From contig JAHDOA010000018.1 of NCBI GenBank assembly GCA_018435055.1, forward strand, positions 276,699 to 340,698: 64,000 bases of DNA, given 5' to 3'. This DNA comes from Pelotomaculum sp. (GTDB taxonomy: Bacteria > Bacillota > Desulfotomaculia > Desulfotomaculales > Pelotomaculaceae). Of the stretch, positions 51,642-64,000 are shown in pieces; within the stretch, counting starts at the first letter, position 1, and every line of letters begins with the position of its first letter. Both the position numbers and the translations under genes were made by a program. The notes beneath the pieces are model-generated. The model had not been told where the DNA came from. It did no database searches and was given only the letters and a program-made list of their open reading frames with translations.

Positions 51642-52220
51642 TTATATTTTCGGTATGATGACGATATGCTGGGCGTCTACACCTGTCCTGCGGGAAACCA
51701 GGTTGTTTATTTCGCTGGACTCACTGACTGAAAGTTTATCCGCTGTGACTATCACAGTCACCGCCTGTTCATCGGCCATAACAGCCGCATCTTTAAAACC
51801 TTTTGCCCTGAGCAGGCTTTCAAGCTCTATTTCTATCTCCATTTTGCTGCTAATTACCAGCAGGCTCTCCTGCGCCTTTTGCCTGGTTTCTACGGCTGAT
51901 TTGTCGTTGTTGATTACCTCTCTCAACCATTCAATCCTTTGCCCCCGGGTCCGGTCTCTCTCCAGCCGGTACTCGACGTAGAAATCGGAACTGTCATTCA
52001 CCCTTCCGGTGTTTACTTCTTCGGTCTTGTTTGCCATAAAGGGCTGCGGAGTGACCTCTTCAATGCTGACATCGTTAACAGGCCGGTTTACAGGCATACC
52101 CTGTCCGGGGTTCTTTTGTTCAAACAGGCCGCCCTTCAGGCCGGCGAGCAGGAGCAGAACACCACATATGCCCATTAAAATCAACGTCAGGGTGCGCCGC
52201 TTAATAATAACAGAGAACAT
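51642..52220 (-). CDS. spoIIIAH: Stage III sporulation protein AH
   Basis: 192 residues: N-terminal membrane helix (about 12-28), low-complexity linker, then the YscJ/FliF-like ring-building domain at the C-terminus (FKDAAVMADEQAVTVIVTAD and VSRRTGVDAQHIVIIPKI). Mother-cell protein that docks with forespore SpoIIQ to form the A-Q channel. Two bp from spoIIIAG. Confidence 0.93.
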   Translation of the reverse strand: MFSVIIKRRTLTLILMGICGVLLLLAGLKGGLFEQKNPGQGMPVNRPVNDVSIEEVTPQPFMANKTEEVNTGRVNDSSDFYVEYRLERDRTRGQRIEWLREVINNDKSAVETRQKAQESLLVISSKMEIEIELESLLRAKGFKDAAVMADEQAVTVIVTADKLSVSESSEINNLVSRRTGVDAQHIVIIPKI

Positions 52221-52222
52221 TT

Positions 52223-52861
52223 CTATCTCCTTTCCATCGGCAGGACAAGTATCTTCTGAGGCTCCACTCCGACCGCCACTCTGGTCGCTTCGTAGAGTTT
52301 TGCCTTCACCCTGGCGTCGCCGGCGCCGTCGGCCACCACCAGCACCCCGGCTATTTGTGGAGCTGTCTGCCTTTCGACCACAGGCTGTTCACCCCCGCTG
52401 CCATTGCGGTTCATAACCAACTGACTGCTGCCTGTGTCTTCCGTGGTAGTGCGCGTACCGCCTCCCTGGTCTTTTTCCTCGGTAGTTTTTTTGCCTGTGG
52501 TATCGTTAACAGCGTACTCCGACCTGGTGGTGCCCGACAGCCGCACTGAAACCTCAACCCTGCCGGCGCCCTCCACCCGCCGCAGCATTTCACAAAGTTT
52601 ACTGCCAAGCTGTTCTTCTTCTGCAGTCATTTCGCTCCTATACTGTTCAGGCGCCGCGTTAACGTTACTTTCCTGTGGCGGGGTTTGTCCGGTAGAGTAC
52701 CCTTTGTCCTGGCCGGCGCCGATGACGGCGGAAAATATTAAGATGGCGACTCCCAGAGCCCCCAGTACTACGAGCCATATGCCGCGCCTTCCCTGTTCCT
52801 TTACCGGAAATTTACTTTCGTTCCCCCTGCCAAAACCAAGGAATTCAAGTAGTTTACTCAA
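52223..52861 (-). CDS. spoIIIAG: Stage III sporulation protein AG
   Basis: 212 residues: one membrane helix (about 29-47) and a ring-building domain with a typical long insertion rich in Thr/Gly (about 120-160), ending in GVLVVADGAGDARVKAKLYE and VEPQKILVLPM. SpoIIIAG forms a large 30-fold ring in the mother-cell membrane facing the forespore. Same operon, 14 bp from spoIIIAF. Confidence 0.93.
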   Translation of the reverse strand: MSKLLEFLGFGRGNESKFPVKEQGRRGIWLVVLGALGVAILIFSAVIGAGQDKGYSTGQTPPQESNVNAAPEQYRSEMTAEEEQLGSKLCEMLRRVEGAGRVEVSVRLSGTTRSEYAVNDTTGKKTTEEKDQGGGTRTTTEDTGSSQLVMNRNGSGGEQPVVERQTAPQIAGVLVVADGAGDARVKAKLYEATRVAVGVEPQKILVLPMERR

Positions 52862-52875
52862 ATCGTCACCTCCGT

Positions 52876-53511
52876 TTATCTGTATATAACCTTGACTTGC
52901 TGCTGTCCCAGACTATAGAAATCAGCTAACGTGCCAATCAGGCCGGACACGGTCCCGCGCGGCGGCCCGGCGTCCGCTGCCGGCTCCGGTCCGGTTTCAC
53001 CGGCGCTGTTGATAGTTATAGTTACCGGCTTTACTTCTTCGATGGCGATATCGCTTTCCGACGGTGGCGTGCCGGCAGTTTGAGCAACATACAAAACTAT
53101 TTCTTTAATCTGCCCAAAGTCAGGCTCGCTGCTGTTGGACTGAATCTTTACATCAACGTCCACCACCGGTGTATCCTGATAGACGCTGGTAAGCGCTATT
53201 ATCTGTCTGGCTATGCCGTCCCCGTATTGTTCTAACGCTTTCTGCTGCTGCTCGTCCGAGATCTTTTTTCCCGCCTCTATCACACTGGAGACTTGCATTT
53301 TATCTCCTTCAGCAGTAAGTGCAGACAACTCTCCGCTGTAGTCCCACTGCACCATAGCGCCCACTGCTTGAATCACAGCTATGATAATAAGAAGGCCCAT
53401 TACCATTTTTACATACTTTTTCAGATCACCCTGCGGCAAGAACATTTCCAGGAACATTGCCAGGATCACAATAATAATAATGTTCTGCACCAGGCTGCGG
53501 ATTGCTTCCAC
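52876..53511 (-). CDS. spoIIIAF: Stage III sporulation protein AF
   Basis: 211 residues: two N-terminal membrane helices (about 8-24 and 34-52; FLPQGDLKKYVKMVMGLLII is the family mark) and a C-terminal ring-building-like domain. Part of the SpoIIIA channel. 65 bp from spoIIIAE. Confidence 0.92.
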   Translation of the reverse strand: MEAIRSLVQNIIIIVILAMFLEMFLPQGDLKKYVKMVMGLLIIIAVIQAVGAMVQWDYSGELSALTAEGDKMQVSSVIEAGKKISDEQQQKALEQYGDGIARQIIALTSVYQDTPVVDVDVKIQSNSSEPDFGQIKEIVLYVAQTAGTPPSESDIAIEEVKPVTITINSAGETGPEPAADAGPPRGTVSGLIGTLADFYSLGQQQVKVIYR

Positions 53512-53576
53512 TGGACCCCCCTTTCCCGGGCAGCGCTCTAATGCCGGACGTTAAACCGTTACAGCCGCTGCCTCGT

Positions 53577-54743
53577 TCACCTTAACATGACCGTTATGTT
53601 ACCTATGCCCACCACGATGGTAATGGTAAAAAAGAATAACAGCCCCACTGTGGCCACCGCGGCAAAAACCAGAAAAAGGCTGTTGCCGAGGCTGTTCAGG
53701 CAATCCACCATCTGTCCGTCAGCAACCGGTTGGATTAAAGAGCCCGCCAGTTTATAGGTAAAAGCCAGTGTTACTATTTTTAACAAAGGCACAATCATTA
53801 TTGCACCAATAACCCCGATCCCCGCGATTCCCAACGCATTTTTGATTAATAGCGAAGAACTGATGACAGCGTCCAGGGCGTCCGACAGCATCCCCCCCAC
53901 CATCGGCACAAAAGTTTTAACTGTAAACCTGGCTGTCCTGAACGTTACTGAATCGCTAACCGCGCCTGCCACTCCCTGTATCGCCAGCACTCCAAGAAAA
54001 ATAGTCGTAAAAACACCCATCAAACCCATAGCCACGGTCTTTAAAAGGTCAGCCAGGTTTGTCACCTTAAACCGGTCAGTCAGGTTGCTGACAACGCCCA
54101 GGATGGCGACAAAAAAGAACAGGGGCAGTATGATGTTCTTAATCATGGTACCGAATATACCCAGCGTGGTTAATATAACCGGGCTGAAAATAGCCGCTGA
54201 AGCAACACCCCCAACAGCCACCAGCAGAGTCAGCAAGACCGGCAGCAGCGCCTGCATGAACGTAACCATAGCGTCCACCACTTCCCTACCCGCGTTGACT
54301 GCCAGGGAAAACGAGCCAATAGCAATTGTTATCAGCACCAGGTAGGTAACGGAATAAGCCAGCTGTCCGGTTGTCCCCTTTTCAAAAGAACAGACCAGGT
54401 TCTGCAGCACGGCGCAAATTACCGCCAGGACCACCAGCTTGCCCAGCAGGGCAAAATTAGCCACTACCTCCTTGAAAAGCATACTTACAATATTGTTGAG
54501 GGTATCAGCCGGTTTCCAGTCCTGTTCACCCTTAACCAGCTTTATTACCATCTCTTTAAAATCAAACTGCGGCACAGCCCCTTTTACCGCGCTGTCCAGT
54601 TGGTTTATATAAGACTGCACATCTTCAAAATCAAGCGGGTCGACCGGGCTCTCCTGGGCAGTTTCGCCGGCAGGGGTCGCGATTACGCCGGCAGGCGAGA
54701 AAACAAGCAGAACAGTAAAAATCAATATCATAACCCTCATCAC
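53577..54743 (-). CDS. spoIIIAE: Stage III sporulation protein AE
   Basis: 388 residues: N-terminal signal sequence (about 1-22), a soluble stretch, and about seven membrane helices from residue 85 on (VANFALLGKLVVLAVICAVL; FGTMIKNIILPLFFFVAILG). A permease-like core of the A-Q channel. The upstream gap to spoIIIAD is unusually long (324 bp) and holds repeats. Confidence 0.93.
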   Translation of the reverse strand: MMRVMILIFTVLLVFSPAGVIATPAGETAQESPVDPLDFEDVQSYINQLDSAVKGAVPQFDFKEMVIKLVKGEQDWKPADTLNNIVSMLFKEVVANFALLGKLVVLAVICAVLQNLVCSFEKGTTGQLAYSVTYLVLITIAIGSFSLAVNAGREVVDAMVTFMQALLPVLLTLLVAVGGVASAAIFSPVILTTLGIFGTMIKNIILPLFFFVAILGVVSNLTDRFKVTNLADLLKTVAMGLMGVFTTIFLGVLAIQGVAGAVSDSVTFRTARFTVKTFVPMVGGMLSDALDAVISSSLLIKNALGIAGIGVIGAIMIVPLLKIVTLAFTYKLAGSLIQPVADGQMVDCLNSLGNSLFLVFAAVATVGLLFFFTITIVVGIGNITVMLR

Positions 54744-55067
54744 TAAACCTCACCGCCTTACATACCATCGGGGACATACCCCGGCATACCGGGGACATTC
54801 CTCCGACCCCAGAGGAATACATGTTAGAGAGGTGTGTCCCCATTCCGCTGTCTGGTATCCTTATACCATTCATTTTTTATAACAATTTTTCTTTAATAAA
54901 TTGAACCGGCGCATTACAGGAATTACAGGATTTTTCTAACCCGTTTTCAATTAGGTACATCCTTCATTCAGTAGGGCTGGATTTATCCAGCCGTGCGGTT
55001 GGGGAAATTCTCCGGCGTTTTAAGGTGGGTTGAACCTTATGTCCGTAAATGAGACTTTTTGAAAGCT
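54744..55067. repeat. Repeat-filled gap inside the spoIIIA operon (AD-AE)
   Basis: At 54788-54860: GGGGACATTCCTCCGACC, then AGAGGAATAC and GAGAGGTGTGTCCCC, ending CTGTCTGGTATCC. The same string of words is at 55541-55612. ATTCCTC/GAGGAAT forms an inner hairpin, GGGGACA/TGTCCCC an outer one. A second hairpin GGCTGGAT-TT-ATCCAGCC is at 54975-54992, and a TTACAGGAATTACAGGATT stretch at 54913-54931. No gene is present. Confidence 0.75.
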
Positions 55068-55454
55068 TTACGGTACTAGTTTCAGGAGCATCGTCAATAC
55101 CGCCACCACAATCGGCACCGCCAGCACCATGATTAGGATTTTAGCCGCAAACTCAATCTTGGAAGCAATCGCCCCTTCACCTGCATCGCGGCAGATCTGC
55201 GCGCCAAATTCCGCAATATAGGCAATGCCGATTATTTTAAGAATGGTCCCCATATATACCATATTGATGCCCGCTTTATTCGCCAGTTCCTTGATAATAT
55301 CCATGATTGAACTGATTTTCCCCAGCACCAGCAGGAAAATGATTATTCCTGCGGCAACGCTCAGGAGGACCGCCAGTTCCGGTCGCTGGCTTCTAATCAC
55401 AACTATCAGCACGGTAGCTATAAACCCGATAGCAACTATCTGCAGCACATCCAT
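55068..55454 (-). CDS. spoIIIAD: Stage III sporulation protein AD
   Basis: 128 residues with four membrane helices and the family sequence IAYIAEFGAQICRDAGEGAIASKIE near 76-100. Small membrane component of the SpoIIIA complex. It is flanked on both sides by repeat-containing gaps, which is odd for an operon usually packed end to end. Confidence 0.94.
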   Translation of the reverse strand: MDVLQIVAIGFIATVLIVVIRSQRPELAVLLSVAAGIIIFLLVLGKISSIMDIIKELANKAGINMVYMGTILKIIGIAYIAEFGAQICRDAGEGAIASKIEFAAKILIMVLAVPIVVAVLTMLLKLVP

Positions 55455-55651
55455 AAATTAACCCCTGCTTCTTAATTTCTTATTCATGCCGGGGCATTCC
55501 TCGTCCCTCGTAGGGCGGGTTTTAACCCGCCATTCCAATCGTGGGACATTCCTCCGACCAAAAAGGAATACCCGTAAGGTGAGGTGTGTCCCCGTTCCTA
55601 TGTCTGGTATCACAAAACGGTAAAAGCTACTAAATAACTACTTTGTTCCTA
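55455..55651. repeat. Repeat-filled gap inside the spoIIIA operon (AC-AD)
   Basis: A perfect hairpin GGCGGGTT-TT-AACCCGCC at 55515-55532 is followed at 55541-55612 by the second copy of the GGGACATTCCTCCGACC ... AGGAATAC ... GAGGTGTGTCCCC ... TGTCTGGTATC element. Identity with the 54788-54860 copy is high in the conserved words and low in the spacer. No gene. Confidence 0.75.
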
Positions 55652-55855
55652 TTAAAACAGCTTAAAAACTGATTTGACCTGATCAAACAGAATCGCCAGC
55701 AGCTGGATTACCCAGATGAAAACGATTGCCAGGCCGGCCAGGGTAACAATATGCCCCTGCTCTTCTTTGCCGGCTTGCTTTAATATCGCATTAAGGACTG
55801 CCACCAGGATCCCGACACCGGCTATTTTAAAAATTAAGTCAATACTGTTAACCAT
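55652..55855 (-). CDS. spoIIIAC: Stage III sporulation protein AC
   Basis: 67 residues, two membrane helices: IDLIFKIAGVGILVAVLNAI then EEQGHIVTLAGLAIVFIWVI. ATG at 55855 has an AAAGAGGTG site; the longer frame to 55927 lies in the end of spoIIIAB and is rejected. Spaced 17 bp from spoIIIAB. Confidence 0.93.
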   Translation of the reverse strand: MVNSIDLIFKIAGVGILVAVLNAILKQAGKEEQGHIVTLAGLAIVFIWVIQLLAILFDQVKSVFKLF

Positions 55856-55872
55856 TGCTGCACCTCTTTCTC

Positions 55873-56391
55873 TTAATAAAGAATAAGAACAACAAGCAGC
55901 CCGCCCAGAAAACCAAGATAGTTCCACAGCTTTACATTGCGGGCGGCTTCGCCTTCCGCTTTGGCGTTTTCTGATTTAATCTGTTCCATAGCCAGGTTCA
56001 AGTGCTTGACTTGATCGGCGCGGTCTGAAATTCCCAGAGAAGAACCCAGGCTGCGCAGAATGATCAGGTCCTGCGGATTTAAAGCGCTTTCACGGTAATA
56101 AGCGCAAAGGGAATTTTCCCAGGCAGCCGCGGCGGTAATGCCGGCAGCAGCAGAAAGTTCTGCCGCGGCCCGGCTGAACAAAGGCGCTACCGCCTGATCG
56201 CAGCGGTTGGCCACCTGCTCCAGGGCTACCTTCATGTGATTCGCCCCGTAAGAAATTTCCGTTTCCAGCATCTGCAGCGCATACCCCAGTGATTTCAGCT
56301 CTCTGGGCCTGCGGCTGTATCTGCCGGCCACGGTCATACCGCCGATACCGCTGGAAGCTACTACCATAGCGGCTCCAAGCAATTTAATCAT
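55873..56391 (-). CDS. spoIIIAB: Stage III sporulation protein AB
   Basis: 172 residues: N-terminal membrane helix, cytoplasmic helical domain (RPRELKSLGYALQMLETEIS near 28-47), C-terminal membrane helix (FLGGLLVVLILY). Resembles GspF-type platform proteins of secretion systems. Overlaps spoIIIAA by 4 bp. Confidence 0.93.
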   Translation of the reverse strand: MIKLLGAAMVVASSGIGGMTVAGRYSRRPRELKSLGYALQMLETEISYGANHMKVALEQVANRCDQAVAPLFSRAAAELSAAAGITAAAAWENSLCAYYRESALNPQDLIILRSLGSSLGISDRADQVKHLNLAMEQIKSENAKAEGEAARNVKLWNYLGFLGGLLVVLILY

Positions 56392-57404
56392 TTTCTCACC
56401 CCCACAGCCCGAAAAGTCTTGCCATCAACTATATTTTCAACCGTTCCGGCGCCACGGGAACGACCTAAAATTACATACCGCTCGATCATCTTGGAACGGA
56501 TCAACCTGCCGAGCACAGGCCTTTCAGCCAGGTCAGCCAGCGATGAGCCGTGGGCTGTAAGAAGGATTTTGACCCCGGCGTTTAAAACTTCCTCCATAGC
56601 GTCAACATCCTCCCGGCGGCCAATTTCGTCAGCCGCAATCACCTGAGGCCCCATCGAACGCAAAAGCATCATCATGCCTTCCGCTTTAGGGCAGCCGTCT
56701 AAAACATCGGTCCTTATGCCCACATCACGCTGGGGTACTCCCCTGTAACAACCCGCTATTTCAGAACGTTCGTCAACCAGCCCGACAGTAAGCCCCGGAT
56801 AAAGGAGGCCCGGGACACCGCTGCTGATCTGCCTGATTATGTCTCTCAGCATGGTCGTCTTGCCGCACCTGGGTGGTGACACCAGGATAGTATGATAAAT
56901 TCCACCATTTTTTTTATCAACAATATGAGGCAGGAGCCCTGACGCCGCCCCCGCAACCTCACGGGAGACACGCAGGTTGCAGCAGGACAGGTTTTTCAAC
57001 GTCCTGACTTTCCCCCCGTCCAATACCGCCCTGCCCGTAATGCCCGCCCTGTGACCGCCCGGCAGGGTTATAAACCCGGTCCGCAGCTCCTCCTCCAGGG
57101 CATAGAGTGAAGAACCGCTGATCAGGTCAATTAAATTCTCCATATCCGCCGCTGTAACGTGGTAAGCTTCGACAGGCTGCCGCGCCGGCTTCCCTTCCGG
57201 ATTTACAAATATATCTCCTGATGATAACCCGAGCGCCAGCGGTTTTCCCTGCCTGATCCTGATCTCTTCAACGCTGTCAAGGATCGGACCAGGCAGAGCT
57301 GAAATCATGCGCCGGATTTTCACAGGAAGCACCAGCAGGATTTCATTGCCCGCCCAGGCGCTGTAACGATCATCTTTACAGTTGATAAAATCTGCTCCAA
57401 TCAT
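56388..57404 (-). CDS. spoIIIAA: Stage III sporulation protein AA (secretion ATPase-like)
   Basis: 338 residues, AAA/GspE-like ATPase. Walker A SPPRCGKTTMLRD near 177-189, Walker B-like VIAADEIGRREDVDAM near 254-269, and an N-terminal domain beginning SALPGPILDSVEEIRIRQGKP-like near 36-55. It powers the SpoIIIA complex from the mother cell. First gene of the operon; the 83 bp upstream before the IS3 scrap should hold the mother-cell promoter but I see no clear sigma-E boxes. Confidence 0.94.
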   Translation of the reverse strand: MIGADFINCKDDRYSAWAGNEILLVLPVKIRRMISALPGPILDSVEEIRIRQGKPLALGLSSGDIFVNPEGKPARQPVEAYHVTAADMENLIDLISGSSLYALEEELRTGFITLPGGHRAGITGRAVLDGGKVRTLKNLSCCNLRVSREVAGAASGLLPHIVDKKNGGIYHTILVSPPRCGKTTMLRDIIRQISSGVPGLLYPGLTVGLVDERSEIAGCYRGVPQRDVGIRTDVLDGCPKAEGMMMLLRSMGPQVIAADEIGRREDVDAMEEVLNAGVKILLTAHGSSLADLAERPVLGRLIRSKMIERYVILGRSRGAGTVENIVDGKTFRAVGVRK

Positions 57405-57487: not shown

Positions 57488-57665
57488 ATGCGGCGGCTGG
57501 AGTGTATCGACAAATATATTAAGCAAAGTCTATTGTGTTGTAGCCAAGCCTGCACGAGAGAACAGGCTAAGGCGACCTTGTTTGATTACATAGAACTATT
57601 TTATAACCGAAAAAGACTGCATTCCGGAAACGGCTATGTTGCTCCATTAAGAGCGGAAATGGGAA
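57488..57665 (+). pseudogene. Remnant of an IS3-family transposase (orfB C-terminus)
   Basis: The plus-strand frame contains TREQAKATLFDYIELFYNRK followed by RLHSGNGYVAPLR, the standard end of IS3/IS150 OrfB after the last catalytic Glu. The rest of the transposase and any terminal repeats are missing, and the frame then runs into the intergenic repeat. Dead fragment. Confidence 0.8.
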
Positions 57666-57667
57666 AC

Positions 57668-57730
57668 AAGGAACGGGGACACACCTCCATCATAAGCATT
57701 TCTGCATGCTGTAGAATGTCCCCGATACTA
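57668..57730. repeat. ACACCTC...GCATTTCTGCATGC...AATGTCCCC repeat, copy 2
   Basis: GGGGACACACCTC, then AAGCATTTCTGCATGC, then AATGTCCCCGATAC. Matches 5878-5950; outer GGGGACA/TGTCCCC arms pair. Lies right after the IS3 scrap. Confidence 0.68.
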
Positions 57731-57804
57731 GTAACCAAAGCGGCTGGTGCAGTATATGTTGTAGGTAACAAATGTTTTAATAAAAACGGGATGTGATTAA
57801 ATCC

Positions 57805-58110
57805 ATGAGAAACAATTACGAGCCGGCCGCTTTTCTTTTCCCCCTGCCGCCGGAGCTAAGGGAACAATATTATAATTGGTCCAAAACACATCAGAAAGGC
57901 GCCGGTTTTGACGGCAAAGAACCGCTTTTAATCCCGGTTTACCCGGCCTTTCCGGGGGCGGCGCCTTACCCCCCCAATTACTCATGCAAAGGTGGATTTG
58001 GCATGCCGGGTGTAAACCCGTTCATATTATTTCTCATACTGATCCTCCTCGTATTTGCCTTTAAAAAAGAGCAGATCGTGGAAGCGATCAAAAAGATGCT
58101 GATCAAATAG
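57805..58110 (+). CDS. Small Pro-rich protein with C-terminal membrane helix
   Basis: 101 residues from the ATG at 57805 (a GTG four codons upstream is also possible). The first 75 residues are Pro/Tyr/Gly-rich (FPLPPELREQYYNWSKTH; then FPGAAPYPPNYSCKGGFGMP), followed by one hydrophobic helix NPFILFLILILLVFAF and a basic amphipathic end. The layout resembles small spore-associated membrane proteins, but I recognise no family. A good terminator follows. One of very few plus-strand genes. Confidence 0.6.
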   Translation: MRNNYEPAAFLFPLPPELREQYYNWSKTHQKGAGFDGKEPLLIPVYPAFPGAAPYPPNYSCKGGFGMPGVNPFILFLILILLVFAFKKEQIVEAIKKMLIK

Positions 58111-58216
58111 CATAATTAACCCCTTACGGGCATAAAAAAGAGTGGATAGAAAAAGGCGTAGTTCTATAGGTCAACTTAATAAACAATACCAAAAACCCAA
58201 ACCAAAAAGCGAAAAA

Positions 58217-58250
58217 GAGGCACTATCTCAAACGATAGCGCCTCGTTTGT
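58217..58250 (+). terminator. Intrinsic terminator after the small membrane protein
   Basis: Stem GAGGCACTATC / GATAGCGCCTC with loop TCAAAC, followed by GTTTGTTATATT. Confidence 0.75.
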
Positions 58251-58416
58251 TATATTAATAACTATATACTCTGCCAACTTGCCTCACTCTATATTACCTA
58301 CAAGATCGGAAAATGCCCAAGCCCAAAAGTCGTATAAGGTTTTTTGAGTGCCATCTCCACCGTTTAGGAATAATTCCTTTCCGGTTTTCTTTTGCGTGAA
58401 AATGACGGGATAGCCT

Positions 58417-60117
58417 TTATTGGTCATCCGCATTACACTTATGTATTTCTTTAATCAGAAGCCTATTTTCATTCAATGCAGACTCAAGGCGTAAACAGTT
58501 TTCGTTTTTATTCCTACGTAACGTACGTATTTCATCGATTTTACTGTCCACTTTGCTAATACGCGAATCAAACTCGGCTTCGAGAAATTTATGCAGTGCA
58601 TTCACAAAATGCTTTTCAAGCTTACGAGCAGCATTGTTAAAGCCGCTCCTAATATTTTCTCTATTACTGCGCATTTCTGCATCGATTCTCTGTGCATCAG
58701 CATCCTCTTTTACCTGCATACCAACTGAGAAAACTACTCCTAATATAGAAAGTGCTTTCCCCGCAACAGCTATACCTTTGGTTATCTTAACAGCTTCCCA
58801 TGGCTTAAATTTATGACCAAAAAAATGACCAATGGTTTTAACTGCCGAATGTACTGAGCTTTCAGAAAACGAAGCTAGTTTTGTTGCATTTGTTGCGACA
58901 CCGGCTTTATATGCATTTTCTGTAACAAATTTTCCTGCCCTATTCAGAGTATCTGATTTTAGAAAGCTTATAATCTGTAGTGGCAATGTATCTTTCTTCT
59001 CCGAAAGACGTATATCAAGCTTCTTTGAGAATTCTGATTTATTTAATTGTTCTAATTCACTATCACAGTCACCGACAAGACTTTTTATTTTTTCTTGAAC
59101 ATCGGCTTCGCATTGGTTTGCTATAGCATCAACCTTTTGCGTCGCTTTTTCCAATCCCTCTTTTACATCATCTTCCTTTGCGTCACTTACAATTAAGTTT
59201 GATGCTTTAATGCCTTCATTTCTAATATCAGCGGATGCTTCAGTATAAATATTTTCAACACTTTGCTCAATGCGCCTGCGATTATCCGCCAAGATATGTC
59301 GTTCTTGTAGATATCGTTCCTCAAGCGCATCGATATCACTGTCTCCGGACGAAGGCTGAAGATGCTGTATGCCGCTCTGTAAAACCTTGTCAAGTATATA
59401 TAAGGCGGTTGTGAGCCGAGCCGGAATGTTCTTCTCTTGAATGAATTGATTTAACGTTTCGACAAACCGGCTATACCCGCTTCTTTCAAGCAACTCCTCA
59501 GCTATATCCTTATCTTCCTCTGTTAAGCTATCAATGTACGATTCAGCAGAAACAAAACATATGCGTAAATTTTCTGGTGTGTATGGGGTAGTGACTTTTC
59601 GCAGATCCTCTCGTATAATATCTTGGCGTTCCTGCGTGTTTCCGCCACGCTCCATTTTATTAACAACTAAAATCATTTCGCCAGCTTTATCTCGTTCTAT
59701 CGCTAATTTGCGAAAATGCTCAGCAAGATGTGAATCAAATAGTTCATTGGTTATGACAAATATCAACATATCTGCATTGGCGATAGCAGCATATGATATT
59801 TCATCGTGATCGGGACGAATCTTTGTATGAATGCCCGGCGTGTCTATTACACTAACACCATTCCAGCCGTATGTATGCATCTGTTGCGTGGTTATACCTT
59901 CGCCAATAGCTATATCTTTGTGACCGGTCAACATTTTCAATATTGATGATTTACCAGCACCATACTGGCCGACGAAAATAAGATTGATTGGTTTGTTGTC
60001 TGTATAAATACTAACAGGTAAGCCGGAGTATTTAACACCAGCTGCGTCAAGTAGATTCCGCACCTTTTCAATAAGCTCAGTGCTTTTTGCTGTCCATTCA
60101 GCTATTTGAACGACCAT
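58417..60117 (-). CDS. Dynamin-like GTPase A of an accessory pair
   Basis: 566 residues. G1 GQYGAGKSS at 50-58, G3 DTPGIHT near 96-102, G4 VVNKME near 154-159 (NKxE instead of NKxD), in a domain of about 230 residues. Then comes a long helical stalk (about 255-395), a hydrophobic stretch near 450-475 (GIAVAGKALSILGVVFSVGM) that may insert in membrane, and a C-terminal coiled coil (about 490-560). This is the build of bacterial dynamin-like proteins. ATG start with GGGGGAGGG site. It is 14 bp after GTPase B, so the two surely act together. Region is AT-richer than the core genes. Confidence 0.75.
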   Translation of the reverse strand: MVVQIAEWTAKSTELIEKVRNLLDAAGVKYSGLPVSIYTDNKPINLIFVGQYGAGKSSILKMLTGHKDIAIGEGITTQQMHTYGWNGVSVIDTPGIHTKIRPDHDEISYAAIANADMLIFVITNELFDSHLAEHFRKLAIERDKAGEMILVVNKMERGGNTQERQDIIREDLRKVTTPYTPENLRICFVSAESYIDSLTEEDKDIAEELLERSGYSRFVETLNQFIQEKNIPARLTTALYILDKVLQSGIQHLQPSSGDSDIDALEERYLQERHILADNRRRIEQSVENIYTEASADIRNEGIKASNLIVSDAKEDDVKEGLEKATQKVDAIANQCEADVQEKIKSLVGDCDSELEQLNKSEFSKKLDIRLSEKKDTLPLQIISFLKSDTLNRAGKFVTENAYKAGVATNATKLASFSESSVHSAVKTIGHFFGHKFKPWEAVKITKGIAVAGKALSILGVVFSVGMQVKEDADAQRIDAEMRSNRENIRSGFNNAARKLEKHFVNALHKFLEAEFDSRISKVDSKIDEIRTLRRNKNENCLRLESALNENRLLIKEIHKCNADDQ

Positions 60118-60131
60118 ATGTAACCCTCCCC

Positions 60132-62222
60132 CTATTTAGTAATAAGCAATTCGGTCAGTTGTTGTGCCAAACGCACTCTATTAACGGTTAAAGCGTTAAG
60201 CTTGTTAAGTGGTACATGTGCGATTTTCAATTTATATTCTATACTTATATTATCTTTTGCACAGCCTCGTCCAATTGCCCTTGAGAGAAGAATTTTGGGG
60301 TTGTCGTTATAGAACACAAACCACACCTGCTCTTTTAGCAGGACTGAAAGATTTCTTCTAATATCATCTGGGAATCTCTTCCCATCATCTAACATTATCA
60401 TAATAGCATTGCCGGGTATACGCGCCAAATCTCGAACGTGCCAGTCCAAGCCGCCAGCACCCACAAAACTTAATGCTTCTATAATTAACATCTTATTTAT
60501 TTCTTTCAATTTACGATTAAGACGCCATCCCAAATCTTTCTGTGCCTCAGATAATTTGAATAAGGAATCAATAACAGCGTTTATATCGTTTGCCACACCA
60601 TACAATCGTTTTTTTAGTAGTTCGTTATAAAGTATATCTAACATTTGTTTTCTTAGACTTCGTATTGTCTTGTCAATATGGTCATTCAATTTTCCTTCCA
60701 ACTTGCGCCTTGCATCCATTGCTTTATTTTCACGGCTTTTAAAAAAAAATGATCCAAAAAATCCTATTAAAACTACACCAGTTGTTGCAAACCATCCAAC
60801 TGGTCCTGTTATTAATCCTAGAATGGTTGCTATGCCGACGCCACCGCCTGCAATAGTAGAGACCCAACTCCATATACGTTTGCCGTCAATTAAGCTTGAC
60901 ATATTTATTGACTTATCGGCAAATACAGCCGCAGAAAATGAAATTTCCTGATTTATTTCACGAGTTATCTCTCTTAGTCCATCATCACAATCAGATGCCA
61001 ATTTTTTTATTAATTTATCACACCGCCCTTCAATGTTCTTTGGTTTTAATACCGCATCCCATTTTCTGTTGGCATTCGGATTATCATAGTTATCTTCGGC
61101 AAAAGATGCGATTTCGCTTATTAATGTGCTTCTAATTTTTGTAAGCATTGAATCTATTTGAATTATCCCATCATCTTTAAATTTCTTCGTCCAGTCACTT
61201 AGTGCACGGCGCTTGTTCAACAACAGGCGTCCCTGTTCACTGTTTTGAGCACTTTGCCACAATAATTTCTCCATTGTATCAAGCAATGGCTTTCCAACGC
61301 TATCGACAAAAGTCTTGACTCTATAAAACTTACCGCGAGTGATAACCTCTTGCGTAATAAATTGCTCAACATATTCGAATTTACTTAATTCCGCCAATGC
61401 CTGAGCGTATTCGTTGCATTCTGGCTGCTGCGACAGATACGCTGATTTGAGATGAACATATGCAAACCGAATATCATGCCAGTCTTGTCCATATTGGATG
61501 GCAAAGGCAAAAAATTGAGCCTTAATGCCATCCAACCGCTTAAAATCAAACCTTTTTGCTATATCTCGCAACATAAGCTTATAGCTTTTAGTTGTGTCTA
61601 TATCAACCTTTACATTAATAATTCCTAAAACTGGCTTGCCGAGATTTCGTACTTTAGCCAAGCATTCGGCTTCTGCAGCTTGCGGAGCATCATCTGTTAC
61701 GAGGAATAAAATTAAGTCTGCGGTTTTGGCTGCTTCAAAAGCGGTAGTTTCATCTTCTTCACCTTCAAAAGCAGCTATGCCTGGAACGTCTGTTATTCTG
61801 AGGCCATTCCAGCAATATGGACGAACATCACGCGTGGTTCTCTGCGAACCCTTTCCGATTGAAGCTCCGTTTCCGTGTGTAAGGATCTCCATGAGGGTAG
61901 ACTTTCCCGCCATTGTACGACCAAAAAGCGTTACGGAAAAAGAAGACATCGAATCCTTTAGCTGTTGTATATCATCTTCAACTTGTGAGGACAGATTTTT
62001 CAGCTTTAAGCTGATATCCGATAGTTGTGTTTTCAGGACATCTCTGGCATTCGGGGTATTAACTTTACTTTTGCCTAACTGCATCAAACTATCTCTTATT
62101 TGCTCTGAAGCGGTGGATACTGCCTTCTTAAGCTCATTAACGCCGTCTTCTGCAAGCCGATACCCCGTATTGGCATACCTTGTACATTCTTCTAATGCGG
62201 TTTGTAATTGTGACGAATCCAT
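60132..62222 (-). CDS. Dynamin-like GTPase B of an accessory pair
   Basis: 696 residues from the ATG at 62222 (site AAGGGA). An N-terminal coiled-coil stretch (1-95) precedes the GTPase: G1 GRTMAGKST at 101-109, G3 DVPGIAAFEG near 146, and a degenerate G4 INVKVD. The middle is helical; two adjacent hydrophobic helices at about 450-495 (GGGVGIATILGLITGPVGWF then GVVLIGFFGSFFF) look like a membrane paddle. The last 200 residues have no recognised domain. A hetero-pair of large GTPases with one membrane hairpin recalls paired bacterial dynamins and the LeoABC type. Function inferred. Confidence 0.75.
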   Translation of the reverse strand: MDSSQLQTALEECTRYANTGYRLAEDGVNELKKAVSTASEQIRDSLMQLGKSKVNTPNARDVLKTQLSDISLKLKNLSSQVEDDIQQLKDSMSSFSVTLFGRTMAGKSTLMEILTHGNGASIGKGSQRTTRDVRPYCWNGLRITDVPGIAAFEGEEDETTAFEAAKTADLILFLVTDDAPQAAEAECLAKVRNLGKPVLGIINVKVDIDTTKSYKLMLRDIAKRFDFKRLDGIKAQFFAFAIQYGQDWHDIRFAYVHLKSAYLSQQPECNEYAQALAELSKFEYVEQFITQEVITRGKFYRVKTFVDSVGKPLLDTMEKLLWQSAQNSEQGRLLLNKRRALSDWTKKFKDDGIIQIDSMLTKIRSTLISEIASFAEDNYDNPNANRKWDAVLKPKNIEGRCDKLIKKLASDCDDGLREITREINQEISFSAAVFADKSINMSSLIDGKRIWSWVSTIAGGGVGIATILGLITGPVGWFATTGVVLIGFFGSFFFKSRENKAMDARRKLEGKLNDHIDKTIRSLRKQMLDILYNELLKKRLYGVANDINAVIDSLFKLSEAQKDLGWRLNRKLKEINKMLIIEALSFVGAGGLDWHVRDLARIPGNAIMIMLDDGKRFPDDIRRNLSVLLKEQVWFVFYNDNPKILLSRAIGRGCAKDNISIEYKLKIAHVPLNKLNALTVNRVRLAQQLTELLITK

Positions 62223-62351
62223 TATCCCGTTCCCTTTACGCAATATACTAATTAGATTGTCCTAATCGTTCATTAATTTCTTCATATTGATTTTGAAACC
62301 CGACTACGATAATCATTTGCAGGTTATAATGCTTAACCCCACGTGTTACCT

Positions 62352-62413
62352 GGAGCGAGCCTTCAGTTTGAACTATTCTGAAATTACTAATAGTTGCTTC
62401 GGGTTCGAGTTCC
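62352..62413. repeat. Direct repeat flanking the VWA gene, copy 1
   Basis: GCCTTCAGTTTGAACTATT...AATAGTTGCTTCGGGTTC with inner arms AACTATT/AATAGTT. A diverged copy lies at 63349-63402, on the other side of the VWA gene. The remaining 62223-62517 gap also holds a GGGCGTGC/GCGCGCCC palindrome near 62423 and a TTAACAGGATTAACA word, but no gene. Confidence 0.72.
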
Positions 62414-62517
62414 GAACATAGGGGCGTGCATTGCGCGCCCTTGTTAACAGGATTAACAAATGTGTCTAAAATACTTACTGTCCTTTTATGACATTTATGA
62501 TTAACTTGCTTGCCTCA

Positions 62518-63189
62518 TCATTTTGAATCTTTCTTTTTATTCCCTCTGCGTTTTTCATAGTCCTCGTCGATACCCTTTTTCCAGTCGGCGCTGATGGGCG
62601 CCGCATTGGCGCGGAAACAGCACACCGCGTCACTTACAACCGCATAATTAAGGTGTATACCCTCAGGGTCAGCGTGATAATTGGCGGCACGGTCAGCTGA
62701 TATGCCAAATCGTGCGGCAGTCTCTACAGCGTCAATGTTCGCTCCCAGGAAGATGAACTCCCAGCCGTATTTTTCTTTCTGCCGTTCTATCATCTGCCGC
62801 ACTTTGTCGTAACTGTACTCGCGGCTGGCATTTTCCATGCCGTCAGTTGTGACGACAAACATAACTTTTTCTGCCCGCTCATCTTCAACCGTGTGTTTCT
62901 GCCCATTAATGATTTTATCGATGGTGCGGCCGACCGCGTCCAGGAGAGCTGTGGCGCCGAGCACGAAATACTCCCGGTCAGTTATAGTCGCGACACATTT
63001 GAGGTTGATGCGGTCGTGCAGCAGCTCATATTTGTCATCGAACAAAACCGTGGTAATGACGCACTCGCCATCTTCCTTTTTCTGCTTGTCCAGGAGCGAG
63101 TTATAGCCGCCGATGGTATCGCTCTCCAGCCCGCTCATGGAGCCGCTGCGGTCAAGTATAAATACCAATTCTGTAAGACCTTTTTTCAT
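62518..63189 (-). CDS. Von Willebrand factor A domain protein
   Basis: 223 residues, nearly all one VWA fold. MIDAS motif D-x-S-x-S in FILDRSGSMSG (about 9-19), the conserved T in LGATALLDA near 76, and TTDGMENAS (D of the third MIDAS loop) near 115. C-terminus is basic (KRRGNKKK). Such small VWA proteins organise partner proteins in AAA+ or GTPase systems. ATG 63189 with AAGGAGG nine bases before; the ATG at 63198 is too close to that site. It is 300 bp upstream of the GTPase pair and on the same strand, flanked by direct repeats. Confidence 0.85.
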   Translation of the reverse strand: MKKGLTELVFILDRSGSMSGLESDTIGGYNSLLDKQKKEDGECVITTVLFDDKYELLHDRINLKCVATITDREYFVLGATALLDAVGRTIDKIINGQKHTVEDERAEKVMFVVTTDGMENASREYSYDKVRQMIERQKEKYGWEFIFLGANIDAVETAARFGISADRAANYHADPEGIHLNYAVVSDAVCCFRANAAPISADWKKGIDEDYEKRRGNKKKDSK

Positions 63190-63242
63190 CCAAGTCATCC
63201 TCCTTGATTGTTTTTATAATCAGAGGATAACACTTTGATCTA

Positions 63243-63402
63243 TTATGGAGGTCGCCCGCCGGGCGACAAATTACGCTCCTTTCACCAATAACACCAATTA
63301 CTGCTCCAAGCATGGTCAAGCCGTCCCTTTGTAGTTAATTAGCCGGCGCTAGCCTTCAGTTTAAACTATAAGGAAATTCCTAATAGTTGCTCCGGGTTCA
63401 AT
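63243..63402. repeat. Palindrome and direct repeat copy 2 upstream of VWA gene
   Basis: GTCGCCC-GCC-GGGCGAC palindrome at 63248-63264, and at 63349-63402 the CCTTCAGTTTAAACTAT...AATAGTTGCTCCGGGTTC copy of the repeat at 62352-62413. In this copy the core AACTATAAGGAA-ATTCCTAATAGTT is a strong hairpin and may terminate the gene to the right. No gene in 63190-63413. Confidence 0.68.
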
Positions 63403-63413
63403 ACATATACTCA

Positions 63414-63899
63414 TTATGAATGACCAATTGGTACGTCAATATGGTCAATGGCAACACAGACACCATTCTTTATAATGTAGCATTCAACATAATGCGGTCC
63501 AAAGAATCTAGTAGTTTCTACTCTCTCGGGTTGGTTAGTTTTTAATATTTCGCCCCTAATATGGTTTCTTCTTTCAGCTTCTGCTCCAACGTTTCGAACT
63601 TTCCACCATATATTATATGGCCTTGGGACATTACATTCTTTTATATAAAATTTAAGGCTTAAATTGTGGGGCAAGAACTTTTTCAAAACTTTATTGATAT
63701 AAACACTGATGGGGGCTGTCCTAAAGCCTTTTCCAGAAGTTTCGCAGTCAATCACAACTTCATAAATTTCATTAATATTTACTTCATCTTCTATGAACTC
63801 CTCAGTATTTGAAAAAGTAAAAGTATTTCTACCAAATGCACTTTTACTTAGGGCGGCAGCATGCGTGATCGGTTTACCATAAATGTTAACAGTTACCAT
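63414..63899 (-). CDS. Stand-alone AGS-C-like nucleotide-sensor domain
   Basis: 161 residues resembling the AGS-C domain found at the C-terminus of CBASS CD-NTases and related cyclases: NIYGKPITHAAALSKSAFGR at the start, KKFLPHNLSLKFYIKECNVP near 92-111, WWKVRNVGAEAERRNHIRGE near 118-137 and HYVECYIIKNGVCVAIDHID near 151-155 to the end. No nucleotidyltransferase motif (GSxxxGT, DxD) is in this frame. The ATG has an AGGGGG site and overlaps the end of an upstream frame by 14 bp, so it is either a coupled separate gene or the frameshifted end of a longer protein. Family match is from memory. Confidence 0.65.
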   Translation of the reverse strand: MVTVNIYGKPITHAAALSKSAFGRNTFTFSNTEEFIEDEVNINEIYEVVIDCETSGKGFRTAPISVYINKVLKKFLPHNLSLKFYIKECNVPRPYNIWWKVRNVGAEAERRNHIRGEILKTNQPERVETTRFFGPHYVECYIIKNGVCVAIDHIDVPIGHS

Positions 63900-64000
63900 T
63901 TACCCCCTGGGAATTAACAGCCTTTACCCAGGGCGACAACAGTCGTTCCCTGTTGACGTTGGGATCAACACCCTCACTCATAAAGTAAATAATAAGCTGA
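63886..64000 (-). CDS. C-terminal end of a gene leaving the window
   Basis: An open frame from the right edge to a TAA at 63888-63886, ending SEGVDPNVNRERLLSPWVKA then VNSQGVNGNC. It overlaps the start of the AGS-C-like gene. It could be the nucleotidyltransferase part of a CD-NTase separated from its sensor by a stop or frameshift, or a different upstream gene. Too short to identify. Confidence 0.45.
   Translation of the reverse strand, partial: QLIIYFMSEGVDPNVNRERLLSPWVKAVNSQGVNGNC

What the first reader, a model, noticed from the sequence alone, without database searches (positions are those of the whole stretch)
58417..64000. Paired dynamin-like GTPases with VWA protein and an AGS-C sensor: candidate defence or stress module
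Seen: two large GTPases 14 bp apart, each with G1/G3 motifs, long helices and a hydrophobic segment; a MIDAS-intact VWA protein and an AGS-C-like protein upstream on the same strand; AT-rich base composition across the GTPase genes, repeats and an IS scrap nearby. Known: AGS-C domains sense cyclic nucleotides in CD-NTase (CBASS) proteins, and bacterial dynamins can act in membrane surveillance after phage attack. Inference: the four genes form one system where a sensor triggers membrane remodelling by the GTPase pair. I know of no described system with exactly this set.
Basis: partly seen in the sequence, partly recalled or inferred. Interest (0 to 1): 0.8.

Follow-up and report, generated by a model that had tools for sequence, protein, structure and literature searches.

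The report
Two-dynamin defence pair with NusA-like tail
The two neighbouring GTPase genes match the LeoA-LeoBC dynamin pair that is catalogued as a likely anti-phage system, one of the two proteins is predicted to end in a NusA-like RNA-binding-type fold, and the supposed sensor gene beside them is only the end of an enzyme gene cut off by a transposable element.

The parts
58417..60117 (-). leoA-like gene, dynamin-like GTPase, 566 aa
   Evidence: PADLOC LeoA 1.3e-120 over residues 4-560; Pfam DLP_helical and Dynamin_N; P-loop residue 50, DTPG residue 92
58711..58785 (-). LeoA hydrophobic segment (residues 445-469), putative membrane paddle
   Evidence: highest hydropathy windows; membrane role inferred
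60132..62222 (-). leoBC-like gene, dynamin-like GTPase, 696 aa from ATG (703 aa from an upstream TTG at 62243)
   Evidence: PADLOC LeoBC 1.1e-107; AF2 model has BDLP and LeoA 4aur among its best fold matches
61443..61940 (-). LeoBC GTPase domain (residues 95-260)
   Evidence: GRTMAGKS, DVPG, NVKVD motifs; conserved in alignment A2
60762..60827 (-). LeoBC hydrophobic segment (residues 466-487), putative membrane paddle
   Evidence: hydropathy; lies in the low-confidence part of the model, 429-496
60135..60449 (-). LeoBC C-terminal domain (residues 592-696) with a predicted NusA KH1-KH2-like fold, no GXXG in the two loops
58217..58244 (-). intrinsic-terminator-like hairpin downstream of leoA
   Evidence: 11-pair stem followed by T run; 0 of 200 shuffles fold as well, z -4.75
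62518..63198 (-). VWA protein, 226 aa; not part of the GTPase pair
   Evidence: relatives in G003, G018, G006 and a second own copy lie near ADP-ribosylglycohydrolase or macro genes
63414..63860 (-). 3' remnant of a CD-NTase gene (AGS_C domain), truncated
   Evidence: 81-82% identical to the C-terminal third of about 460-aa CD-NTases in G018 and G006; no N-terminal part elsewhere in the assembly
63861..64000 (-). end of a DDE-transposase element, source of the AGS-C ORF's start codon and first ~13 codons
   Evidence: 100% identical to the end of own contig C57 over 141 bases, 82-89% to copies in G024, G019 and G016 that end a 459-aa frame; the frame of L079 is DDE_Tnp_1 2.2e-20
62346..62406 (.). 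61-nt direct repeat, copy 1, between LeoBC and VWA
   Evidence: further copies in other genomes of the family
63339..63399 (.). 61-nt direct repeat, copy 2, between VWA and the AGS-C remnant
   Evidence: 84% identical to copy 1

Best explanation
The two GTPases are a LeoA-LeoBC dynamin pair that likely works on its own, without the VWA and AGS-C neighbours, by forming a mixed GTPase complex that would brace or reshape the cell membrane during phage attack. Shown: both proteins match the LeoA and LeoBC profiles, the gene order and tight spacing recur in related loci, and neighbouring VWA and AGS-C genes do not. Predicted: LeoBC has a BDLP-class body and a C-terminal NusA KH1-KH2-like domain. 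Inferred: LeoA and LeoBC assemble across their GTPase domains or stalks, the hydrophobic paddles enter the inner membrane when it is disturbed, GTP turnover drives tethering or remodelling that delays lysis or contains damage, and the KH-like tail serves as a docking or control module. As its two loops lack GXXG, a protein or an unusual nucleic-acid ligand is more likely than classical KH-RNA binding. The AGS-C ORF is leftover cyclase sequence from a CBASS-like operon and likely takes no part.
For: PADLOC LeoA 1.3e-120 and LeoBC 1.1e-107. Adjacent LeoBC-LeoA in 14 of 15 loci, the 15th cut by its contig end; ORF spacing 0-16 nt. VWA and AGS-C found in 0 of 15 of these loci by tblastn at 1e-5, and AGS-C in 0 of 15 by a profile whose positive control rang. 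Terminator after leoA. Sparse, accessory spread: 3 of 299 genomes of the phylum, own genome included, at 1e-25, with only 4 candidates scored per genome. Restriction, BREX or TIR genes within about 5 kb of the pair in 6 of the 15 loci, from hand-picked neighbours only. Fold: Foldseek top rows BDLP, LeoA, IniA; tail matches NusA. Precedents seen: abstract of PMC8844932 (DynA delays lysis after phage infection), abstract of PMC6104087 (a paired DLP tetramer tethers membranes), two sections of PMC4159319 (LeoA and LeoBC proposed to act as a heterodimer).
Against: No phenotype of any kind for this pair. LeoA of E. coli showed no nucleotide or lipid binding alone and was implicated in vesicle release, not defence (PMC4159319). 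The LeoBC paddle is in the low-confidence part of the model. No complex was modelled. Whole-chain TM-scores to BDLP are low (0.20-0.23), as would be expected if hinge angles differ, but they do not prove the arrangement. The neighbour scan covers short contigs for several loci (3.3-9 kb). G018, where the parts are apart, is a draft of about 190 contigs.
Confidence: 0.68

Rival explanations
1. One reading: LeoBC, LeoA, VWA and AGS-C form one system in which AGS-C senses a nucleotide signal and triggers membrane remodelling.
For: Same strand and within 5.5 kb; AGS_C is a genuine domain match; a 162-aa AGS_C protein 85% identical to this one exists in a Eubacteriales MAG (P0002), so short forms occur more than once.
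Against: AGS-C ORF starts inside a transposable element and lacks the catalytic part. P0002 begins differently, so the shared shortness is not one conserved gene start. G018 carries LeoBC-LeoA, a full-length CD-NTase and a VWA gene on three different contigs of a draft assembly. 0 of 15 related loci have VWA or AGS-C next to the pair. Gaps of 215 and 295 bp and a repeat between the genes.
Confidence: 0.03
2. The pair is a vesicle-release or membrane-maintenance system and not a defence system, as proposed for LeoABC of E. coli.
For: LeoA/LeoB deletions reduced vesicle release by roughly half in PMC4159319 (section 20 read). Defence status rests on database assignment.
Against: The host looks like a spore-former without the E. 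coli envelope type (spoIIIA-like ORFs at 51642-57404, recognised by eye), so outer-membrane vesicles may not apply in the same way. Sparse distribution and restriction, BREX and TIR genes near the pair in 6 of 15 loci fit an accessory defence gene.
Confidence: 0.2
3. A decaying island: the pair itself may be silent or non-functional, stranded among remnants.
For: Surroundings hold several remnants: IS3-like scrap, a cut CD-NTase, intergenic repeats.
Against: Both GTPase frames are full length with intact P-loop and G3 motifs, 72-87% identical full-length LeoBC homologues exist (P0037-P0039), and a terminator-like hairpin is kept.
Confidence: 0.1

Closest known systems
LeoA-LeoBC / LeoABC ('Dynamins' in PADLOC, Eleos in DefenseFinder)
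   Same: Two tandem dynamin-like GTPases in the same order; profile matches over most of each protein; LeoBC here is one continuous chain.
   Different: E. coli H10407 has LeoBC split into leoC and leoB (PMC4159319). The PADLOC LeoBC match leaves 94 C-terminal residues uncovered here and 44-114 in five other LeoBCs.
Cj-DLP1/2 pair and BDLP1/BDLP2
   Same: Tandem bacterial dynamins; BDLP is the top fold match of LeoBC; paired action shown for Cj-DLP1/2 (abstract).
   Different: No sequence-level match in the PDB for LeoBC at 0.01. Whether those proteins have a KH-like tail was not examined.
DynA of Bacillus subtilis
   Same: Dynamin with a phage phenotype (abstract of PMC8844932).
   Different: DynA is one fused chain of two dynamins (PMC4159319); this genome has a separate frame with two Dynamin_N matches of that kind.
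CBASS with a 2TM-SAVED effector and an AGS_C-bearing CD-NTase
   Same: The AGS-C remnant is 81-82% identical to such cyclases in G018 and G006; the G006 copy sits beside a PADLOC 2TM-SAVED effector, the G018 copy beside a similar ORF.
   Different: Here only the last third of the cyclase remains, ending at a transposable element, with no effector in view.
ARG-centred ADP-ribose counter-systems with vWA chaperones (PMC9503650 section 3.8)
   Same: VWA relatives lie near ADP-ribosylglycohydrolase or macro genes; section read in full.
   Different: The window's own VWA gene has no such neighbour.
NusA KH1-KH2
   Same: Predicted fold of the LeoBC tail over nearly its whole length; a distant LeoBC tail shows weak sequence-profile similarity to NusA.
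   Different: GXXG absent from both loops in 61 of 61 aligned LeoBC tails; the window's own tail is not linked to NusA by sequence profiles.

Membership tests
LeoA-LeoBC (Dynamins/Eleos) | LeoA and LeoBC profile matches over most of both proteins | tested here: met
   1.3e-120 over LeoA 4-560; 1.1e-107 over LeoBC 12-609 of the 703-aa form
LeoA-LeoBC (Dynamins/Eleos) | the two genes adjacent, same strand, LeoBC first | tested here: met
   14 bp apart; same in 14 of 15 related loci
LeoA-LeoBC (Dynamins/Eleos) | GTPase motifs in both | tested here: met
   P-loop and DxxG in both
LeoA-LeoBC (Dynamins/Eleos) | dynamin-like fold with membrane paddle | tested here: inconclusive
   LeoBC fold matches BDLP/LeoA; hydrophobic segments present but the paddle region has pLDDT under 50; LeoA was not modelled
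LeoA-LeoBC (Dynamins/Eleos) | anti-phage activity | not testable with these tools
   needs a phage challenge
CBASS | CD-NTase with a catalytic domain | tested here: not met
   only residues 311-463 of the 463-aa cyclase are found in the assembly; Pfam finds AGS_C alone
CBASS | cyclic-nucleotide-responsive effector next to the cyclase | tested here: inconclusive
   none among the ORFs from 57488 to 64000; contig ends at 64000; no effector search of the whole own genome was run
ARG/macro-VWA neighbourhood | VWA gene near an ADP-ribosylglycohydrolase or macro gene | tested here: not met
   absent around 62518-63198. Present at the four other loci read (G003, G018, G006 and the own copy on C69; two of the macro readings by eye); a fifth match, 43 residues in G005, was not read
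NusA-type tandem KH domain (LeoBC tail) | tandem KH fold | tested here: met
NusA-type tandem KH domain (LeoBC tail) | GXXG loops | tested here: not met
   0 of 61 in either loop; 29 of 29 NusA have both. A GXXG elsewhere in the tail, mostly at its start before the first strand, occurs in 32 of 61
NusA-type tandem KH domain (LeoBC tail) | sequence-profile similarity to NusA | tested here: inconclusive
   window-type tails: hhalign probability 0.1-0.4%; 18 (local) and 31 (global) of 100, then 19 of 100 column shuffles reach the score. Klebsiella/IMG LeoBC tails, which are nearly identical to each other: probability 11%, score 23.7, 0 of 100 shuffles, NCBIfam NusA 0.058 and 0.009. All tails combined: probability 1%

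The most novel reading that the evidence does not exclude
LeoBC is a fusion of a membrane-remodelling dynamin with a NusA-derived tandem KH module, so that this defence pair is wired to sense nucleic acid or the transcription machinery (for example phage antitermination complexes or aberrant transcripts) and converts that signal into membrane action: an RNA- or transcription-gated dynamin.
Probability: 0.25. Interest if true: 0.8.

Novelty: new member of a known kind. Interest (0 to 1): 0.42.

Why it matters
It removes a tempting but wrong four-gene system: an IS end supplied a false start codon to a dead cyclase fragment, which makes a convincing-looking 'stand-alone sensor'. It also gives a defence dynamin family a testable handle: a conserved C-terminal domain, mostly outside the current LeoBC profile, with a predicted NusA-like KH fold. 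In the abstracts and passages seen here I met no statement of how LeoA-LeoBC pairs are triggered; a defined input domain would make that open to a simple truncation and pull-down test.

Tried and rejected
Rejected: AGS-C as a stand-alone sensor. The 161-aa P0001 (99% identical; a listed copy that may be the window's own) and 162-aa P0002 (85%) first suggested a conserved split gene, but P0002 has a different start, P0017 begins like the 1016-aa ORF beside the CBASS pair in L057 and L058, P0031 has a SAVED-like start (by eye), and the window copy starts in an IS end: separate truncations, not one gene.

Rejected: the 61-nt repeats as part of a cassette with the GTPases. Further copies occur in G023, G010 and G018 away from LeoBC; their nature stays open.

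Led nowhere: Pfam at E 10 with the LeoBC tail (none); PDB sequence searches with the tail profile and the Klebsiella tail: no NusA or KH protein named among 4 and 4 weak rows; protein search with the tail alone (6 proteins, 50-84% identical); phage records (no match; plasmids: 6 records, 3 over most of the query).

Results against the NusA reading: and the NCBIfam scan in which 6 of 7 LeoBC tails, the window's among them, gave no KH or NusA family. The weak NCBIfam rows for the Klebsiella and IMG tails also hold families with no visible link to KH (glycogen synthase, TrbH, a retron effector). The best row there is PRK13764 (1.2e-4, 'ATPase'); that it and PRK01064 bear KH domains is recalled, not from a call. 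The full-model VIA rows were filled by GTPase domains. Absence of other families from those lists is not evidence.

Literature: seen were PMC4159319 (abstract, sections 16 and 20, passages), PMC8844932 and PMC6104087 (abstract and outline), PMC10482375, PMC11811056, PMC13335696, PMC12757443, PMC3997798, PMC7810710 (passages), PMC9503650 (passages and section 31). The first report of Eleos/Dynamins as a tested defence system (Millman 2022) is recalled, not seen. In the listings of searches (15 of 177 papers listed; 10 of 11) I found no paper that puts a NusA or KH domain on a bacterial dynamin. Two papers name such things side by side: PMC7810710 lists NusA and a dynamin-family protein as separate proteins changed in phage-resistant Proteus, and PMC3997798 cites an interaction of RNase Y with DynA. 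The labels IS4-like, IS3-like, KH1-KH2 and BDLP-class are recalled.

Full report
What is there. On the minus strand of 57.4-64 kb lie, in transcription order, an AGS-C ORF (63899-63414), a VWA ORF (63198-62518) and two large GTPases (62243 or 62222-60132, and 60117-58417) with 14 bp between the last two. The ATG at 62222 has a Shine-Dalgarno-like AAAGGG in front of it (read) and matches the start of database copies (696 aa), so I number LeoBC from there. G+C is about 39% over the GTPases against about 50% elsewhere. The window ends at the end of contig C49 of its assembly.

The GTPases. PADLOC names them LeoA (1.3e-120) and LeoBC (1.1e-107); Pfam sees MMR_HSR1, Dynamin_N and DLP_helical in LeoA. 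Both have intact P-loop and DxxG motifs and one hydrophobic segment. A terminator-like hairpin lies about 170 bp behind leoA (0 of 200 shuffles fold as well). PMC11811056 (passages) says Dynamins and Eleos hits are often found as couples and groups them; PMC4159319 (sections 16 and 20) describes LeoABC of E. coli as tandem dynamins. This is therefore a known kind.

Do the other two genes belong? LeoA lies next to LeoBC in 14; L090 is a 3.3-kb contig that ends inside the region. None has a tblastn match at 1e-5 to the window's VWA or AGS-C, to a full CD-NTase, a SAVED effector, a macro or an ADP-ribosylglycohydrolase protein (the VWA and AGS-C queries do find their relatives in other loci), and an AGS_C profile that finds its positive control (L057) finds nothing in them. 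Several of these contigs are short, so this speaks for immediate neighbours only. G018 has LeoBC-LeoA on C92, a full-length CD-NTase on C88 and a VWA gene on C143; it is a draft of about 190 contigs, so only adjacency is excluded. Among the neighbours that I picked for profile scans there are BREX BrxC (L035), type I, II and IIG restriction genes (L036, L042, L093, L094) and a TIR protein (L037): 6 of 15 loci, with most neighbours not scanned.

The AGS-C ORF. It is 81-82% identical to the C-terminal third of about 460-aa CD-NTases in G018 and G006. The G006 cyclase carries SMODS/DncV-like and AGS_C domains and sits beside a PADLOC 2TM-SAVED effector: a CBASS-like pair; G018 has a similar pair of ORFs (not scanned). 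DNA homology to the cyclases stops at window 63850; from 63860 (63858 against one copy) to 64000 the sequence is 100% identical to the end of another contig of the same genome over 141 bases, and 82-89% identical to copies in G024, G019 and G016, where it is the 3' end and terminus of a 459-aa frame (the G024 copy is DDE_Tnp_1). The ATG of the ORF lies in that element. The whole assembly holds no other part of the cyclase that the search could find. So this is a truncated gene, and its 'start' is an accident. Other truncated pieces of the same family occur in G010 and G023.

The VWA gene. Of 25 family genomes, 5 have a match, own genome included; one of them (G005) is a 43-residue match that I did not read. 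A second own copy lies on C69. In the four other loci read (L059-L062: G018, G003, own C69, G006) the gene sits beside or within a few ORFs of an ADP-ribosylglycohydrolase or macro-domain gene (domains confirmed by Pfam for L060 and L061; the macro reading of L059 and L062 is by eye). PMC9503650 section 3.8 describes such ARG-centred systems with vWA chaperones. The window's copy is alone and bracketed by a 61-nt direct repeat.

Sequence tests of that fold. For the window-type tails, profile-profile comparison with 29 and then 59 NusA proteins gives probability 0.1-0.4% and a score that 18 (local), 31 (global) and 19 of 100 column shuffles reach: no support, with shallow profiles. For the nearly identical tails of the distant Klebsiella and IMG LeoBCs, NCBIfam finds NusA at 0.058 and 0.009 and a NusA-like family at 0.011 and 0.026 among its weak rows, which also hold unrelated families, and the profile comparison has probability 11% and scores 23.7 against a shuffle mean of 12.6 (maximum 19.7, 0 of 100); they keep an IGK motif at the KH2 position. 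All tails combined give 1%. A profile of the window-type tails finds those two proteins at 2.7e-4 and 3.3e-4. I take a NusA-like tandem KH fold as likely (about 0.85, resting on the predicted structure) and RNA binding as open.

How it likely works. Inference from paired dynamins (abstracts of PMC8844932 and PMC6104087; PMC4159319 discussion): LeoA and LeoBC form a mixed complex in the cytoplasm, reach the membrane through their hydrophobic paddles when phage attack disturbs it, and by GTP turnover tether, brace or remodel it. The tail would control assembly or dock a partner. None of these steps was tested for this locus.

Verdict. The locus is a new member of a known defence kind, next to unrelated or broken genes. 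The KH-like tail is the one part that may surprise a specialist.

Noticed in passing
L060, L061, L059, L062: VWA genes of this family lie near ADP-ribosylglycohydrolase or macro-domain genes, with DUF262-like (by eye) or other accessory ORFs around; fits the ARG-centred systems of PMC9503650.
   Followed up: partly
L058 6636-7375 (G010) and proteins P0031, P0017, P0002: Several apparently independent truncations or fusions of the same CBASS-type cyclase, including a cyclase piece joined to a SAVED-like start (by eye) and one joined to the start of the ORF that flanks the CBASS pair: repeated loss of one operon.
   Followed up: partly
window 62346-62406 and 63339-63399; G023:C69, G010:C1:87742, G018:C75:3913: A 61-nt intergenic repeat brackets the VWA gene and occurs at low copy in other genomes of the family; nature unknown.
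   Followed up: partly
L092, L093, L094, L095: LeoBC-LeoA pairs on contigs classed as viral in IMG/VR; L092 has three serine recombinase-like ORFs directly upstream, L094 a terminase-like ORF downstream (both by eye): perhaps carriage on mobile elements or prophages.
   Followed up: no
G000:C11:15548-17335 (L010 7450-9873): The same genome has a frame of about 810 aa with two Dynamin_N matches, a DynA-like double dynamin, with a SIR2-like ORF nearby (by eye).
   Followed up: no
L091 4652-8252 (G051:C8): A more distant pair of adjoining GTPase-like ORFs (541 and 684 codons; the longer is 24% identical to LeoBC) in a run of large ORFs; possibly another dynamin pair type.
   Followed up: no
window 57488-57796: C-terminal scrap of an IS3-type transposase (Pfam rve_2) between the spoIIIA-like genes and the GTPase island.
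   Followed up: partly
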